Below the pieces are notes generated by a model that saw only the letters and a program-made list of their open reading frames with translations, did no database searches and was not told where the DNA came from. From a virus, in the IMG/VR virus record IMGVR_UViG_3300030103_002857, positions 1 through 25,280 of that record: DNA of 25,280 nt; one strand, written 5' to 3'. Below, in pieces: positions 1-21,068 of this stretch; position 1 is the stretch's first letter; each line of letters begins with the position of its first letter. A program made the position numbers and the translations under genes.

Positions 1-654
1 CACAAATGTTTAGTAATTAAAAATGGAATAGAAAAAATAGGAAAAGCTAAACCTTATGAACAAAACAAACCTATAAAAATTATTCATCAAAATACTCCTT
101 GGAGAGGACTAAGTGTATTATTAGGTGCAATGCAATTAGTAAAGAATCCACTTATTAGTTTAGATGTATATTCATCTACAGAAATATATGGAAAACAATT
201 TTATGAACAAAATGATTATAATTATACGGCACTTTATAAACAAGCAAAAGAATTACCTAATGTAAATTATATTGGTTATAAACCAAATGAATACATTAGA
301 GAAAATATTCATAATTATAATATGTATGTGTATCCAAGTATCTTTGAAGAAACATCATGCATATCTTTATTAGAAGCTATGGCTGCTGGTCTTTACTGTA
401 TTACAACTAATTATGGAGCTTTGTTTGAAACAGGAGCAGAGTTTCCTATGTATATACCCTATGATACTAACTACAGAAATTTATCTGAAAAATTTGCTTA
501 TGGTATTGATGCAGCTGCTATTACTTTGCATGACCCTACTATTCACCGTCATTTAGAAGATCAATCTAAGTATGTTAATAATTACTATAACTGGACCAAA
601 CAAGCTACGTCTTGGGCCCGATTTTTACAAGGAGCAATTAATGCAAAAAAGTAA
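1..654 (+). CDS. Glycosyltransferase, group 1 / GT-B fold (5' partial)
   Basis: The reading frame is open from base 1, so the gene begins before the window and only the C-terminal 217 codons are seen. A run near residues 112-140 has two Glu residues separated by seven (E-TSCISLL-E) followed by AMAAG, the sugar-nucleotide-binding signature of GT4-like retaining glycosyltransferases. The string FEETSCISLLEAMAAG and the following YCITTNYGA fit the GT-B C-terminal Rossmann half. Such enzymes move a sugar from a nucleotide-sugar donor to a glycan, lipid or other acceptor; the acceptor cannot be told from sequence. The stop overlaps the next gene, a GT-A type enzyme, by 14 bases, which suggests coupled translation and a joint task. 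The first in-window ATG at 130 is not the real start, because clear protein sequence precedes it. Fairly sure of the fold, not of the substrate. Confidence 0.8.
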   Translation, partial: HKCLVIKNGIEKIGKAKPYEQNKPIKIIHQNTPWRGLSVLLGAMQLVKNPLISLDVYSSTEIYGKQFYEQNDYNYTALYKQAKELPNVNYIGYKPNEYIRENIHNYNMYVYPSIFEETSCISLLEAMAAGLYCITTNYGALFETGAEFPMYIPYDTNYRNLSEKFAYGIDAAAITLHDPTIHRHLEDQSKYVNNYYNWTKQATSWARFLQGAINAKK

Positions 655-1603
655 TACGCCCTCGGGCAAAAACAATGAACCCATCTGGTTTAATAAAACA
701 GATTCGAGCAAAATTGTAGAACACAATAAAGATACTTATCAAACTATAAAGACCAACAAAGTAGATTCTGAGGTTACAGAAATTAACATAGGAAATGTAT
801 CCCCATACAAAATTATGGTATGTACACCATGTCATAGTGAAGTCACTATGCATTACACACAAGCTGTTTTAAAATTTCAACAAGCTTGTTTAAGAAAAAA
901 TATATTAGTAAGTTTTACTTTATTAAAATCTTCTTTAGTTACACAAGGTAGAAATATATGTGTAGCTAGTATGTTAAATCACGAAGATAACTATACTCAT
1001 TTATTGTTTATAGATTCTGATATTGATTTTAACCCACAAACTATATTTAAAATGTTAGAAAAAGATAAAGACATTATAGGGGTTCCTTATCCTATGAAGA
1101 CATTAAGTTGGGATAAAATGTGGAGAAGACTGCATGAAAAAGAAGATGCTATTCAAGGGCCTGATGATTTAATGCACTCTGGATATACTTATCCTGTTAA
1201 AACAAATAACCCTAATGATGTTGAGGCTCATGATGGAGTAGTAGAACTTACCCATATTCCAACAGGATGTATGTTAATTAAAAGAAAAGTATTAACTGAT
1301 TTAATTGAAGCTAATCCAGAACTAGAAATCTTTCAAGCTACTATCATTAATGGTAAAGAAGTTAAACAACCTAACATGTATAATTTATTTGATACCTTAC
1401 ATGATCCTAAAACTAAACGTTATTTTGGTGAAGACTTTGGTTTCTGTCAAAGATGGCGAGACATAGGTGGTAAGATATATGCATATATTAATGATTATAT
1501 TACTCATGTAGGTGAGTATTCTTATTGTGGTCGTTTTAGAGATGATTTGTGGCAAGGAAGTCGAGCTCTCAAATCTGTTGACGAGCCTAAAAAAATCAAA
1601 TAA
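641..1603 (+). CDS. GT-A type glycosyltransferase-like protein
   Basis: The protein is about 320 residues. I chose the ATG at 641 because AAGGAG lies seven bases upstream; an ATG at 572 in the same frame would overlap the previous gene by 83 bases and adds unlikely sequence. After a hydrophilic 50-residue N-terminus, a domain begins with KIMVCTPCHSE. It carries a DxD motif (D125, D127 in LLFIDSDIDF) expected to bind metal and nucleotide-sugar, and a late GEDFGFC string typical of the catalytic region of GT2-like enzymes. It shares the same ordered motifs with the gene at 16071-16781, so the two are paralogs. It probably transfers a sugar with the upstream GT-B enzyme; the acceptor is unknown. 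It ends 56 bases before the first structural gene. Confidence 0.75.
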   Translation: MQKSNTPSGKNNEPIWFNKTDSSKIVEHNKDTYQTIKTNKVDSEVTEINIGNVSPYKIMVCTPCHSEVTMHYTQAVLKFQQACLRKNILVSFTLLKSSLVTQGRNICVASMLNHEDNYTHLLFIDSDIDFNPQTIFKMLEKDKDIIGVPYPMKTLSWDKMWRRLHEKEDAIQGPDDLMHSGYTYPVKTNNPNDVEAHDGVVELTHIPTGCMLIKRKVLTDLIEANPELEIFQATIINGKEVKQPNMYNLFDTLHDPKTKRYFGEDFGFCQRWRDIGGKIYAYINDYITHVGEYSYCGRFRDDLWQGSRALKSVDEPKKIK

Positions 1604-14454: not shown

Positions 14455-16074
14455 ATGGAAGAAAAATTTATAGATATATTTACAGGTCTTAAAAGAGACT
14501 ATGGTTATGCGGATATAAACTCTGCATACAAAGATCCTTCTACAGGTAAACTTAAATTAAAATACGGGTGGGCAGCAAAAGAATTATTAGAATCAGATTA
14601 CTTAGATCATCTCAGTGGTAAAAAATCTATAGGTATACAACCTTGTGATGATGATGGATTAGCAAAGTTTGGAGCTATAGATATAGATTCAGATGAATAT
14701 GATAACTTTGATTTAAGAAAGTATTTAGAAATTATAGATAAAAAAAATATTCCTGTAGTTCCTGTTAAATCTAAAAGTGGAGGACTTCATATTTATGTTT
14801 TTTTTAATGAACCAGTTAAAGCTAGTTTTGTTAGAAATTTTTTAGATAAACTATTATTTACATTTGATCTTAAGGCATCAACAGAAATATTTCCAAAACA
14901 AACTCAATTAGGGATAGGTTCTGATAGCAAACCTATTAATGGTAACTTTATAAATTTACCTTATTATAATCGTAACGAAAGAGTAGGTTTAAATTTAGAT
15001 GGGACAGAGTTTACTTTTGAACAATTTATAAAAGTCGTCGAAGCTAACACAAAGACTAAAGAAGATCTAGAAGAATTTGCAACAGAACTTATGCGACTTG
15101 AATTAACAGGTGGTGCAGATGAATTTGCAGATGGACCCGTTTGTTTACAAAGATTATCTAAATCTAAGTTAGATGATTATAGAGATAGATTTATTTATAA
15201 TTATATGGTGTTTGCTAAAAAGAAATATCCAGACAATTGGGAAGAAAAACTTTTAGAGGGTGCAAGAAACTATATTGTTTACGATAACATTTGGGGAGAT
15301 GAAAAAGTAAAACAAAAAATTAAAGCATATAAAAAAGATACAGCAGGCCATACCTGTTCTGAAGAACCTATTAATAGTATGTGTGTTAAATCAGAATGTT
15401 TAAAAAGAAAGTTTGGTGTAGCATCAGACAAGGTTAAAAAGTTTCCAGCATTGTCGGCATTGATTAAAATAGATTATTCTCCTGAACCAGAATTTAGATT
15501 TACAGTACACTACAATGACAAAGTAGAGGGTGAGACTACGCAGCAAATAATTGCTAGAGATATTAATTACATCATGGACCAAGAAAAACTTAGACGTTTA
15601 ATTGGAGCACATACACCTATTCCACCGCCGCGAATTAAGGGTGATGACATGCAAAATATTTTAGATAACCTATGGCAAGGAATGAAAACAGAAAAAGCTC
15701 CTCCAGGTACATCACCAAAAGAAATACTTCATAAACATTTAGATGATTATATCCATGGTGTACCAGCAGTTAGTGATGCTTCTTTTAGAAGCGGCAGCAC
15801 ATTAATCGATGATGGGTTTGCTTATTTTGTATTTGATCCTTTTTATAATTTTTTAAAAAATAAAGAATGGAAATCTAAAATTGATAAGACAGGGCGAATG
15901 ATGGAAGATTTTTTTAATGCTGAATTACGACATCTTAAAAGATATCCTAAAAAAGAAACAGAAAAGAAATCACATAACCCAGTAAGATGTGTTAAAATAT
16001 CAATGACTCATTTTGAAAGAGAAGAAAACTCTGTTGAAATAATACCAATGAAAAGCAAAAAGGACATACTATGA
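14455..16074 (+). CDS. Archaeo-eukaryotic-type primase (AEP, TOTE-like)
   Basis: This 539-residue protein carries the ordered AEP primase motifs: DxD at D76/D78 (AIDIDSD), SGGLHIYVFF with H112, then STEIFPKQ and GNFINLPYYN (about 163-172). These residues bind metal and nucleotide in primase-polymerases of the TOTE/PrimPol-like branch. A likely zinc site follows: H299, C301, C310, C315 in a pattern of the kind seen after the catalytic core of such primases. The C-terminal third is helical and charged and may be the PriCT-like or helicase-interacting part; no helicase motif is seen in it. The enzyme should make primers for the family A polymerase encoded about 2.5 kb downstream. Start: ATG at 14455 with a weak AAAG site. 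The stop overlaps the next gene by four bases. Confidence 0.8.
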   Translation: MEEKFIDIFTGLKRDYGYADINSAYKDPSTGKLKLKYGWAAKELLESDYLDHLSGKKSIGIQPCDDDGLAKFGAIDIDSDEYDNFDLRKYLEIIDKKNIPVVPVKSKSGGLHIYVFFNEPVKASFVRNFLDKLLFTFDLKASTEIFPKQTQLGIGSDSKPINGNFINLPYYNRNERVGLNLDGTEFTFEQFIKVVEANTKTKEDLEEFATELMRLELTGGADEFADGPVCLQRLSKSKLDDYRDRFIYNYMVFAKKKYPDNWEEKLLEGARNYIVYDNIWGDEKVKQKIKAYKKDTAGHTCSEEPINSMCVKSECLKRKFGVASDKVKKFPALSALIKIDYSPEPEFRFTVHYNDKVEGETTQQIIARDINYIMDQEKLRRLIGAHTPIPPPRIKGDDMQNILDNLWQGMKTEKAPPGTSPKEILHKHLDDYIHGVPAVSDASFRSGSTLIDDGFAYFVFDPFYNFLKNKEWKSKIDKTGRMMEDFFNAELRHLKRYPKKETEKKSHNPVRCVKISMTHFEREENSVEIIPMKSKKDIL

Positions 16075-16781
16075 CAGATAAAAAAATACCTACAGTGCAT
16101 GTATCAATGCCCTGTTATGATACCATGCAAGTACCAACTTGTTTAAGCCTGCTTAAACTTTTTGACAAGTTTACCACAGCTAAAATTAAAACTAACATAT
16201 CTACATTTAAATCTCCTTACGTAGGTTATTCTAGAAATATGCTTTCAGCTTTATTTTTAGAGTCTAATTATGATTATCAATTATTTGTAGATGCAGATGT
16301 AAGTTTTGAACCAGAAGTTATTGGTTCAATGATCATGGCACAAAAGGATTTTATTTGTGCACCGTACAGAAAAAAGACTCAGGATAATTCTGTATCTTAC
16401 TCTGTAGCATTTCCAGATTATAAAAATATAAATATAGACAAATCAGGGATCACGGAAATTATTGGTGGACCAGCAGGACTAACATTAATTCATAGATCTG
16501 TTTACGAAAAATTAATTAAACAATATCCACAATTAAAAATTAAATATGCTTCAAATATTTCTGATGAGGCTAAAAAATATTTATATAATTTTTGGGAAAA
16601 TACTTTTGATTCAAAAGAAGGGGCTTGGTATGGAGAAGACGTTTCTTTTTGTAGTTTAGCACGACAAGTAGGATTTAAACTTCATGCTTTAGTTCATTGT
16701 GAGGTTGGACACCACGGTACATTTAACTTTTCTGGAAAGTTTGTAGATACATTTTCGCCGAGTAATGAAAAAAGTAACTAA
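16071..16781 (+). CDS. GT-A type glycosyltransferase-like protein in the replication block
   Basis: A 236-residue protein overlapping the primase gene by four bases (ATGA) and the following helicase gene by 17. It has the same ordered motifs as the gene at 641: an N-terminal VHVSMPCYDT, an SRN triplet (R55), a DxD (D74, D76 in LFVDADVSFE), CAPYRKKT, and GEDVSFC near residue 190. This is the layout of GT2-like GT-A enzymes. The length is short but near a minimal GT-A domain. It probably transfers a sugar from a nucleotide-sugar; the acceptor is unknown. Finding it locked by overlaps between a primase and a helicase is odd for a glycan gene, and DNA or protein modification should be considered. 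The fold is likely; activity is inference. Confidence 0.72.
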   Translation: MTDKKIPTVHVSMPCYDTMQVPTCLSLLKLFDKFTTAKIKTNISTFKSPYVGYSRNMLSALFLESNYDYQLFVDADVSFEPEVIGSMIMAQKDFICAPYRKKTQDNSVSYSVAFPDYKNINIDKSGITEIIGGPAGLTLIHRSVYEKLIKQYPQLKIKYASNISDEAKKYLYNFWENTFDSKEGAWYGEDVSFCSLARQVGFKLHALVHCEVGHHGTFNFSGKFVDTFSPSNEKSN

Positions 16782-18210
16782 GATATACGGTCCACCCGGC
16801 ACCGGTAAAACTGAAAAATTAATTAGACGTGCCATGGCCTACATAAGAATAGGCACTCCTATTAATAAAATAGGTTATTTTGCTTTTACTCGTAAAGCAG
16901 CAAATGAAGCAAAAGATCGTATGCTTAAAAAAAATCCACAATATAAAAAGAAACAATTAAAATATTTTCAAACATTACATTCTTTAGCTTTTCATAGTTT
17001 AGGATTGAGAGAAGAAAATGTAATGCAAGACTATCATTATAACGATTTAGGTAAAGAACTTAGTGTAAGAGTTAATGCTAAAAAAGATGCCGACGCATCC
17101 CCTTATTTAACATGCGATAATGAATACTTTCAAATTATTTTAAAAGCAAAAGAAAAAGATATACCGGTGTGGGATGAATACTGCACAGGAGAACACTCTA
17201 CAAATGTAGATCCTGATTTATTAAAACATATCGAAGCTAATTATAACAACTATAAACATCCTGATGTAAATAATTTAGTTGACTTTACAGATATGATTCA
17301 TGACATAGTACAGCAGCCACATAAAATTCCAGAGTTTGATGTAGTATTTATTGATGAGGCACAAGATTTATCTCCCATACAATGGAAACTATATGACATA
17401 TTAAAATTTAAATCTAAAAAAGTTTATCTTGCAGGAGATGATGACCAAGCTATTTATGGGTGGGCTGGAGCAGACGTAGATAGATTCATACAAGAAGAAG
17501 CTGTAGAAAAAGTATTATCTAAATCACGTAGAATACCTAAAGCTGTTCAAGATATATCAGAAATTATTACTGCAAGGATTGAAGGATTAAGAGCTACTAA
17601 AAATTATTTACCTAGAAATGAAGAGGGATTATGCAGTAAAATCAATAGTTTAGAGAATCTTGACTTATTTAGTCAGGATTGGTTAATTTTAACTAGAACT
17701 ATATCTAGATCAAAAGAAATATGTAATCTGTTAAAAGTAAAAGGTTTATATTATGAAAACAAACATCAAAAAAGTTATAACACTAAATTATACAGGGCTA
17801 TTATTAATCATAGCAAATGGTTAAATGGTGAATCAATACCGGATACAGCATTAGAAGACATCAAAGAATACATGGGCAACAGAGAACTTAAAAAAGATTT
17901 AAAGTGGTTTGAATGTTTTGATAATGCTCCAGCTGAAGATAAAATTTACATAAGACTTATGTTGTCAAATAAAGAAAAATTAAGTGATGAAGCAAGAATT
18001 AAAGTATCTACTATTCATGCAGCTAAAGGTGGTGAATGTGAGAACGTAATTTTAGTATTAGACAATGCTAAAAAAATTAGAGAGGCCACAATAAAAAGTG
18101 TAATAAAGCGTGACGAAGAGCATAGAGTGTGGTATGTAGGTTGTACGAGAGCTAAAAGAAACTTATATTTAATGAGAGCAAAAATTGAAAGGAAGGGATA
18201 TCAACTATGA
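16765..18210 (+). CDS. Compact UvrD/Rep-like superfamily 1 helicase
   Basis: A 481-residue SF1 ATPase. Walker A is GPPGTGKT (G9-T16), motif Ia is FTRKAANEA, Walker B is DEAQD (D197-D201), motif III is GDDDQAIYGWAGAD (Q228), and the second lobe has STIHAAKGGE and then VGCTRAK. All core UvrD-type motifs are therefore present. UvrD and Rep are about 700 residues; this one lacks most of the accessory 1B/2B inserts. UvrD-type enzymes unwind with 3' to 5' polarity. With no hexameric helicase visible in the window, it may be the main helicase at the phage fork, an inference. Its ATG overlaps the preceding gene by 17 bases without a good ribosome-binding site, so coupled translation is likely; its stop overlaps the next gene by four bases. 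Confidence 0.88.
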   Translation: MKKVTKIYGPPGTGKTEKLIRRAMAYIRIGTPINKIGYFAFTRKAANEAKDRMLKKNPQYKKKQLKYFQTLHSLAFHSLGLREENVMQDYHYNDLGKELSVRVNAKKDADASPYLTCDNEYFQIILKAKEKDIPVWDEYCTGEHSTNVDPDLLKHIEANYNNYKHPDVNNLVDFTDMIHDIVQQPHKIPEFDVVFIDEAQDLSPIQWKLYDILKFKSKKVYLAGDDDQAIYGWAGADVDRFIQEEAVEKVLSKSRRIPKAVQDISEIITARIEGLRATKNYLPRNEEGLCSKINSLENLDLFSQDWLILTRTISRSKEICNLLKVKGLYYENKHQKSYNTKLYRAIINHSKWLNGESIPDTALEDIKEYMGNRELKKDLKWFECFDNAPAEDKIYIRLMLSNKEKLSDEARIKVSTIHAAKGGECENVILVLDNAKKIREATIKSVIKRDEEHRVWYVGCTRAKRNLYLMRAKIERKGYQL

Positions 18211-20417: not shown

Positions 20418-21068
20418 ATGGCTTACTTAAATGCAAACATACCCGTGCAATATGCACAGATAAGGAGAGAATATTTATATGATCTTAAAAAACATCATGG
20501 AGAAGTTGAAGACTGTATTATCTTTGGTATTAGCTGTATGTCAGGTCGTGCTATCTTATGGCATGCTATTATGGAAAACGGCGCAATCTTTTATCGTCTC
20601 CCAATTACGGCTTTTATTCAACGTGGTTATGAACCCGCAGCTGTTCCACGTAAGAGAATTGATGAACTGGAGCTTTGGAATTCTTTTAGTTATTATCCTG
20701 CTGTTACTAGTTATGATATTCTAGACGGACAAGCAGGTAAATACATAGGCAAAGATAAAAAATGGCATACTGGTAAATATTTATTTACTATTGACTTTGC
20801 TCATCCAGAGAGTAACATTGTTGACACTGATCATTCAGAGATCCCGCATGAACATAAATGCGCTCACATACTTGCTTTAGATGACGGCAACTATGCTGCA
20901 CAACCTAACAATCGATTAATTTGGGACTTACCTTCTTTTACAGTGAAGGATAATATTCCTGATTGGAAAGTGCAAACGACTGAATGGAACGTAGAGGATA
21001 CACAACAGTGGCGAACTGAAGACACTGATAATTTCTTTTACGAAATGGAGGAAAAGAAAAATGATTAA
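20418..21068 (+). CDS. Hypothetical protein following the DNA polymerase
   Basis: A 216-residue protein starting two bases after the polymerase stop. The N-terminal part (YLYDLKKHHGEVEDCIIFGI) leads into a compact alpha/beta region with SGRAILWHAIMENGAIFYRL. The C-terminal 60 residues are acidic and Trp-rich and may be flexible. No catalytic motif is recognised. Its stop overlaps the next gene by eight bases. The same place next to a polymerase gene is occupied by similar unnamed proteins in marine phages as far as I recall, so a replication accessory role is possible but unproven. A competing frame at 20479-20724 inside it is a shadow. Confidence 0.65.
   Translation: MAYLNANIPVQYAQIRREYLYDLKKHHGEVEDCIIFGISCMSGRAILWHAIMENGAIFYRLPITAFIQRGYEPAAVPRKRIDELELWNSFSYYPAVTSYDILDGQAGKYIGKDKKWHTGKYLFTIDFAHPESNIVDTDHSEIPHEHKCAHILALDDGNYAAQPNNRLIWDLPSFTVKDNIPDWKVQTTEWNVEDTQQWRTEDTDNFFYEMEEKKND

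What the first reader, a model, noticed from the sequence alone, without database searches (positions are those of the whole stretch)
16071..16781. A glycosyltransferase paralog locked inside the replication operon
The protein at 16071-16781 and the one at 641-1603 share ordered motifs: PC near the N-terminus, RN before the core, DxD (DAD versus DSD), APY/VPY, an L-I-(H/K)-R string, GED..FC and a C-terminal HHGTFNFSGKF versus HVGEYSYCGRF. They are paralogs of one GT-A family. One sits with another glycosyltransferase before the structural genes; the other overlaps primase and UvrD-like helicase genes by 4 and 17 bases. Such placement suggests timing with replication, so modification of DNA bases or of a replication-stage protein is a possibility beside surface glycan change. 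No base hydroxylase is seen in the window, which argues for caution.
Basis: partly seen in the sequence, partly recalled or inferred. Interest (0 to 1): 0.62.

Follow-up and report, generated by a model that had tools for sequence, protein, structure and literature searches.

The report
Optional sugar-transfer gene between replication genes
A real sugar-transferring enzyme gene sits between two DNA-replication genes of an ocean phage, but close relatives often carry the same two genes with nothing between them, so it is an optional extra rather than a locked part of replication, and what it puts sugar on is still unknown.

Summary
The 16071-16781 protein (P1) and the 641-1603 protein (P2) are homologs (28% identity, E 1e-29), both phrog_1574. 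AlphaFold models of both are GT-A glycosyltransferases with DxD and ED motifs, closest to STIV A197. The window comes from an HTVC023P/HTVC027P-type pelagiphage.

"Locked" is wrong. Of 158 informative contigs found through the primase, 73 read primase-P1-helicase and 85 read primase-helicase, with nothing between, including relatives with 97-98% identical primase. On the primase tree the state changes at least 10 times. P1 alleles differ by up to 32% between phages with 97% identical primase. P1 is under purifying selection: a functional accessory cassette exchanged at one fixed site.

DNA glycosylation is not supported for P1: no TET/JBP, thymidylate-synthase-type hydroxymethylase or TAGT was found in P1-bearing pelagiphage records, including the complete HTVC027P genome. 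However, a separate branch of the same family sits directly upstream of the sliding clamp in T4-like phages, some of which carry TET/JBP or dCMP-hydroxymethylase-like genes nearby, so a DNA role for that branch stays open.

Most likely P1 alters an envelope glycan or a protein of the infected cell; the acceptor is untested.

The parts
16071..16781 (+). P1, GT-A glycosyltransferase (236 aa, phrog_1574), accessory gene between primase and helicase
16290..16298 (+). DxD metal-binding motif of P1 (D74-A75-D76)
   Evidence: invariant D74 and D76; GT-A model
16635..16640 (+). conserved E189-D190 ('GED..FC'), probable catalytic acid region of P1
   Evidence: invariant; role inferred from GT-A families
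14455..16074 (+). archaeo-eukaryotic (AEP-TOTE type) primase, overlaps P1 start by 4 bases
16765..18210 (+). UvrD-like helicase, start overlaps P1 end by 17 bases
641..1603 (+). P2, homologous GT-A glycosyltransferase (320 aa, phrog_1574) upstream of structural genes
1013..1021 (+). DxD motif of P2 (D125-S126-D127)
130..654 (+). GT family 1 (GT-B type by Pfam) C-terminal part, partner of P2; gene cut by the record's left end

Best explanation
P1 is a soluble, metal-dependent GT-A glycosyltransferase carried as an optional cassette at one fixed site in the replication operon of HTVC027P-like pelagiphages. It overlaps both neighbours, so it is probably translated together with primase and helicase (inferred). 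It probably moves a sugar from a host nucleotide-sugar in the cytoplasm onto a precursor of a host envelope glycan during the replication stage, changing the surface of the infected cell (receptor masking or superinfection exclusion), with alleles swapped between phages as hosts differ. Shown: fold, motif conservation, purifying selection, fixed site, repeated gain/loss and allele exchange. Inferred: catalytic activity, co-expression, acceptor and benefit.
For: GT-A model pLDDT 89.7, pTM 0.89; best solved match STIV A197 Z 17.9, 2.2 A over 162 residues, then LH3, COLGALT1, Mnn9. Metal and acidic motifs invariant. dN/dS about 0.22 among close pairs. 73 occupied and 85 empty junctions, clean at base level, at least 10 state changes. 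Primase 97.4% identical but P1 67.7% identical in L403/L407; P1 about 61% identical between phages whose primases are about 50% identical: allele exchange, as expected for a gene facing host variation. No base hydroxylase. Family members on SAR11 chromosomes and, in cyanophage ACG-2014f, near tail collar genes, another GT and a nucleotide-sugar epimerase point to glycan or surface work.
Against: No direct evidence for any acceptor. P1-like genes elsewhere lie near a recombination exonuclease and a related branch lies next to the sliding clamp, not with surface genes. The SAR11 chromosomal relatives L224/L228 sit beside histidine biosynthesis genes, not an obvious glycan cluster. Membrane attachment was not tested beyond overall hydropathy.
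Confidence: 0.4

Rival explanations
1. P1 glycosylates a protein: a host enzyme or a phage protein made at the replication stage. The nearest solved folds act on, or are suspected to act on, proteins (collagen hydroxylysine GTs, viral capsid GTs).
For: Structural neighbours LH3, COLGALT1, Mimivirus R699 and STIV A197. The late region of HTVC027P and HTVC023P encodes 2OG-Fe(II) oxygenases that could hydroxylate proteins.
Against: Shared GT-A fold does not set the acceptor. The match to LH3 is to residues 293-536. P2, not P1, sits with virion genes. The oxygenases are in the late region and not linked to P1.
Confidence: 0.3
2. P1 glycosylates phage DNA bases as they are made by the replisome, protecting against host nucleases, comparable with T4 alpha-GT (which binds the clamp) or the TAGT enzymes.
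For: Position between primase and helicase. A related branch adjoins the sliding clamp in all 76 of 80 T4-like loci with enough downstream sequence. TET/JBP in Cr30, DLP_6 and G104 and dCMP-hydroxymethylase-like genes in G098, G107, G109 and G110. Alpha-GT copurifies with gp45 and T6 TAGT is GT-A (PMC13216743). Other HTVC023P-type clades are reported to carry thymidine hypermodification genes (PMC9599517).
Against: No PF00303 in 47 P1-type records, no PF12851 or PF20691 in the pelagiphage records searched, and no base hydroxylase by Pfam in the proteins scanned from the complete HTVC027P genome. P1 is on a different branch from the clamp-linked GTs. A2 against T6 TAGT gives hhalign probability 0.8%. 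Association in T4-like phages is weak against the control (13/51 against 2/16). Half of close relatives lack P1.
Confidence: 0.15
3. P1 is a decaying or neutral passenger without activity.
For: Frequently absent.
Against: Active-site residues invariant, dN/dS about 0.22, intact ORF and conserved overlaps in the occupied contigs.
Confidence: 0.04

Closest known systems
phrog_1574 (PHROGs, 'unknown function')
   Same: P1, P2, the T4-like clamp-linked GTs, the ACG-2014f gene and SAR11 chromosomal relatives all match it
   Different: P1 is a distinct sub-branch with its own relatives L213-L215
STIV A197 (PDB 2c0n), viral GT-A protein
   Same: Best solved match for both P1 (Z 17.9) and P2 (Z 18.3); only clear sequence-profile hit in PDB (E 0.00069)
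   Different: Archaeal virus; about 22-26% identity; acceptor not established here
HTVC027P gp05 (QGZ17786.1)
   Same: 64% identical, same primase-gp05-helicase order
   Different: Annotated only as hypothetical protein
Anp1 family, GT62 (yeast Mnn9)
   Same: Weak Pfam matches in 11 of 21 family members, Mnn9 Z 15.4; relative L215 passes the cut-off
   Different: P1 itself scores 19.1 against a cut-off of 28.8
TAGT (PF20691; T6 beta-glucosyl-HMC-alpha-glucosyltransferase)
   Same: GT-A fold per PMC13216743; phage gene near replication genes
   Different: No Pfam match for P1, no profile similarity; no hydroxymethylated-base genes found in P1-bearing phages
T4 alpha-GT and beta-GT
   Same: Phage GTs encoded in or near the replication region; alpha-GT copurifies with the clamp
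   Different: GT-B fold; need hydroxymethylcytosine

Membership tests
GT-A glycosyltransferase | GT-A Rossmann-like fold | tested here: met
   AlphaFold pLDDT 89.7 for P1, core of P2 well predicted; Z 12-18 to many GT-A enzymes
GT-A glycosyltransferase | DxD metal-binding motif | tested here: met
   DAD/DSD invariant at both Asp positions in P1, P2 and distant relatives
GT-A glycosyltransferase | measured sugar transfer | not testable with these tools
   needs purified enzyme
phrog_1574 | profile match over nearly full length | tested here: met
   P1 1.4e-20, P2 4.8e-35
Anp1 (PF03452, GT62) | score above the Pfam gathering cut-off | tested here: not met
   P1 19.1 bits and P2 18.7 against 28.8
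TAGT (PF20691) | profile match | tested here: not met
   no match at E up to 1 for P1 or P2; hhalign to T6 TAGT probability 0.8%
T4-type DNA glucosyltransferase (GT-B) | GT-B fold | tested here: not met
   P1 is GT-A
phage DNA base-glycosylation system | source of hydroxylated bases (dCMP/dUMP hydroxymethylase or TET/JBP) in the same genome | tested here: not met
   none in complete HTVC027P by PF00303, PF12851 or Pfam scan of most of its proteins; most other P1 records are fragments, and an unknown hydroxylase cannot be excluded
phage DNA base-glycosylation system | glycosylated nucleosides in virion DNA | not testable with these tools
   needs mass spectrometry

The most novel reading that the evidence does not exclude
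phrog_1574 is a second GT-A family of DNA-base glycosyltransferases coupled to replisomes: clamp-linked members act on hydroxymethylated cytosine made by TET/JBP or hydroxymethylase, and P1 acts on a base hydroxylated by an unrecognised enzyme in pelagiphages, as a switchable protection cassette.
Probability: 0.12. Interest if true: 0.78.

Novelty: new member of a known kind. Interest (0 to 1): 0.42.

Why it matters
Pelagiphages of this type are reported to be among the most abundant viruses in the ocean (PMC9599517). A single gene toggling at one site in otherwise near-identical phages is a natural experiment: matched P1+ and P1- phages would show what the gene does. The T4-like branch, placed against the sliding clamp and sometimes near TET/JBP or hydroxymethylase genes, gives a testable candidate for an undescribed family of DNA glycosyltransferases.

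Tried and rejected
Thymidylate-synthase-type genes as partners: none in 47 P1-type records nor in 41 other HTVC023P-type records. TAGT homology by profile comparison: none. Net charge as a hint of DNA binding: P1 is near neutral, the clamp-linked GTs are acidic, T6 TAGT is neutral; uninformative. Junction as a general insertion hotspot: rejected, all 85 unoccupied junctions have a gap of 3-13 bases and no other gene. Temporal expression of gp05 in HTVC027P: the transcriptome paper's main text gives no value for this gene and its tables are not held. Restriction-resistance data for the OC phage: the paper found reports only a DNA methyltransferase test. PADLOC defence models: no match for P1 or P2. 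Control for hydroxylase association in T4-like phages: suggestive but too small to settle (13/51 against 2/16). No DNA glucosyltransferase appears among the listed PDB fold matches, which excludes nothing by itself.

Full report
What is there. The window is a 25,280-base virus record of an HTVC023P/HTVC027P-type pelagiphage: its proteins match the SAR11 phages HTVC027P and HTVC023P in order. The gene at 16071-16781 (P1) encodes 236 residues and overlaps primase by 4 and the UvrD-like helicase by 17 bases. The gene at 641-1603 (P2) follows a GT family 1 gene and precedes structural genes. P1 and P2 are 28% identical (E 1e-29) and both match phrog_1574, a PHROG of unknown function.

Fold and active site. 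An alignment of 21 relatives gave an AlphaFold model of P1 with pLDDT 89.7 and pTM 0.89. Foldseek and VIA-align place STIV A197 first (Z 17.9, 2.2 A over 162 residues), followed by human LH3, COLGALT1, yeast Mnn9 and Mimivirus R699. P2's core gives the same leading matches (Z 18.3 to A197). The only clear PDB profile hit is also A197. DxD, RN, ED and HxG positions are invariant. Both are GT-A enzymes by fold and motifs; activity itself was not measured.

Is it locked? No. I collected contigs with the neighbouring primase as bait (window primase and HTVC027P primase), so P1 did not bias the sample. Of 158 informative contigs, 73 read primase-P1-helicase and 85 read primase-helicase with a 3-13-base gap and no other gene. 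Empty-site contigs include primases 97-98% identical to the window's (L309, L310, L315-L317) and contigs of 57-59 kb (L335, L338). At base level the empty junction reads ...CTTTAATGA, primase stop and helicase start overlapping, while the occupied one reads ...CTATGA[P1]...AATGA. More distant HTVC023P-type phages also lack a GT there, as does HTVC023P. On a primase tree with the junction trimmed off, the state changes at least 10 times, all forced by well-supported branches.

Selection and exchange. P1 shows dN/dS near 0.22 among close pairs (primase 0.08, helicase 0.12). P1 can be 68% identical between phages with 97% identical primase (L403/L407), yet about 61% identical between clades whose primases are about 50% identical. 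That pattern fits allele exchange at a fixed site. P1 is a functional accessory gene, and the P1- phages I could check keep P2 (contigs of L078/L335 and L066/L322).

Family history. In a protein tree P1 is one clade (100/100), sister to genes in phage-like contigs binned in SAR86 and actinobacterial MAGs (L213-L215), and this group is sister to P2 plus relatives, the two together being one clade (100/98). P1-like L214 lies next to a phage exonuclease (phrog_298), and L213 carries a similar sequence in one frame with the GT. SAR11 chromosomes carry phrog_1574 members.

DNA modification. PF00303 gave 0 of 47 P1-type records; PF12851 and PF20691 gave none in the pelagiphage records; a Pfam scan of most HTVC027P proteins found no base hydroxylase, only two late-region 2OG-Fe(II) oxygenases. 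[quoted passage not shown] Whether that last annotation is P1 I could not tell; no TAGT was found in the HTVC023P-type records searched.

An unexpected parallel. In T4-like phages Cr30, DLP_6, phiM12, OC and RHph_I1_18 a phrog_1574 GT sits directly or within about 1 kb upstream of the sliding clamp. In 80 contigs closest to the phiM12 GT, all 76 with enough downstream sequence have the clamp next. This is a separate branch (99/94). TET/JBP genes occur in Cr30, DLP_6 and G104, and short dCMP-hydroxymethylase-like genes (Asp in place of the thymidylate synthase Asn) in G098, G107, G109 and G110. phiM12, OC, RHph_I1_18 and G097 showed neither. Cr30, phiM12 and RHph_I1_18 carry genes with the Asn of true thymidylate synthases. 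In a clamp-loader-ascertained sample 13 of 51 GT+ loci and 2 of 16 GT- loci show TET, hydroxymethylase or TAGT hits, so the link is suggestive only. T4 alpha-GT is known to copurify with the clamp (PMC13216743).

Conclusion. The gene, the motifs and the overlaps are real; the operon position is an optional occupancy of one site, not a lock. I favour an envelope-glycan role (0.4), then protein glycosylation (0.3), then DNA (0.15); the rest is unassigned. The acceptor is the open question.

Noticed in passing
L295, L297, L298, L299, L300 and L455-L534: A phrog_1574 GT-A gene lies directly upstream of the sliding clamp gene in T4-like phages (76 of 76 loci with enough sequence), overlapping it by 4 bases in phiM12 and RHph_I1_18; TET/JBP, dCMP-hydroxymethylase-like or TAGT genes are nearby in some.
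   Followed up: partly
Cr30 59353-60681 (KF301602.1) and DLP_6 27179-28525 (KU682439.2): Genes annotated as 'SNF2 DNA repair protein' match Tet_JBP (PF12851) with HxD motifs; the annotation looks wrong.
   Followed up: yes
L213:901-2277: An exonuclease-like N-terminal part and a P1-like GT form one open frame, while L214 and L215 carry them as separate genes; a fusion or an assembly error.
   Followed up: no
window 20418-21068: Homolog of HTVC027P gp11, annotated PurM in GenBank; no Pfam match, and PHROGs labels the family 'ferredoxin' (phrog_3704). The PurM label is doubtful.
   Followed up: partly
window 1-654: The GT family 1 gene at the left edge is cut by the end of the record; full-length relatives are about 309-315 aa.
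   Followed up: no
HTVC023P 43038-47988 (MN698239.1): Three 2OG-Fe(II) oxygenases and a putative ferrochelatase sit in the late region near tail genes; possible virion protein hydroxylation.
   Followed up: no
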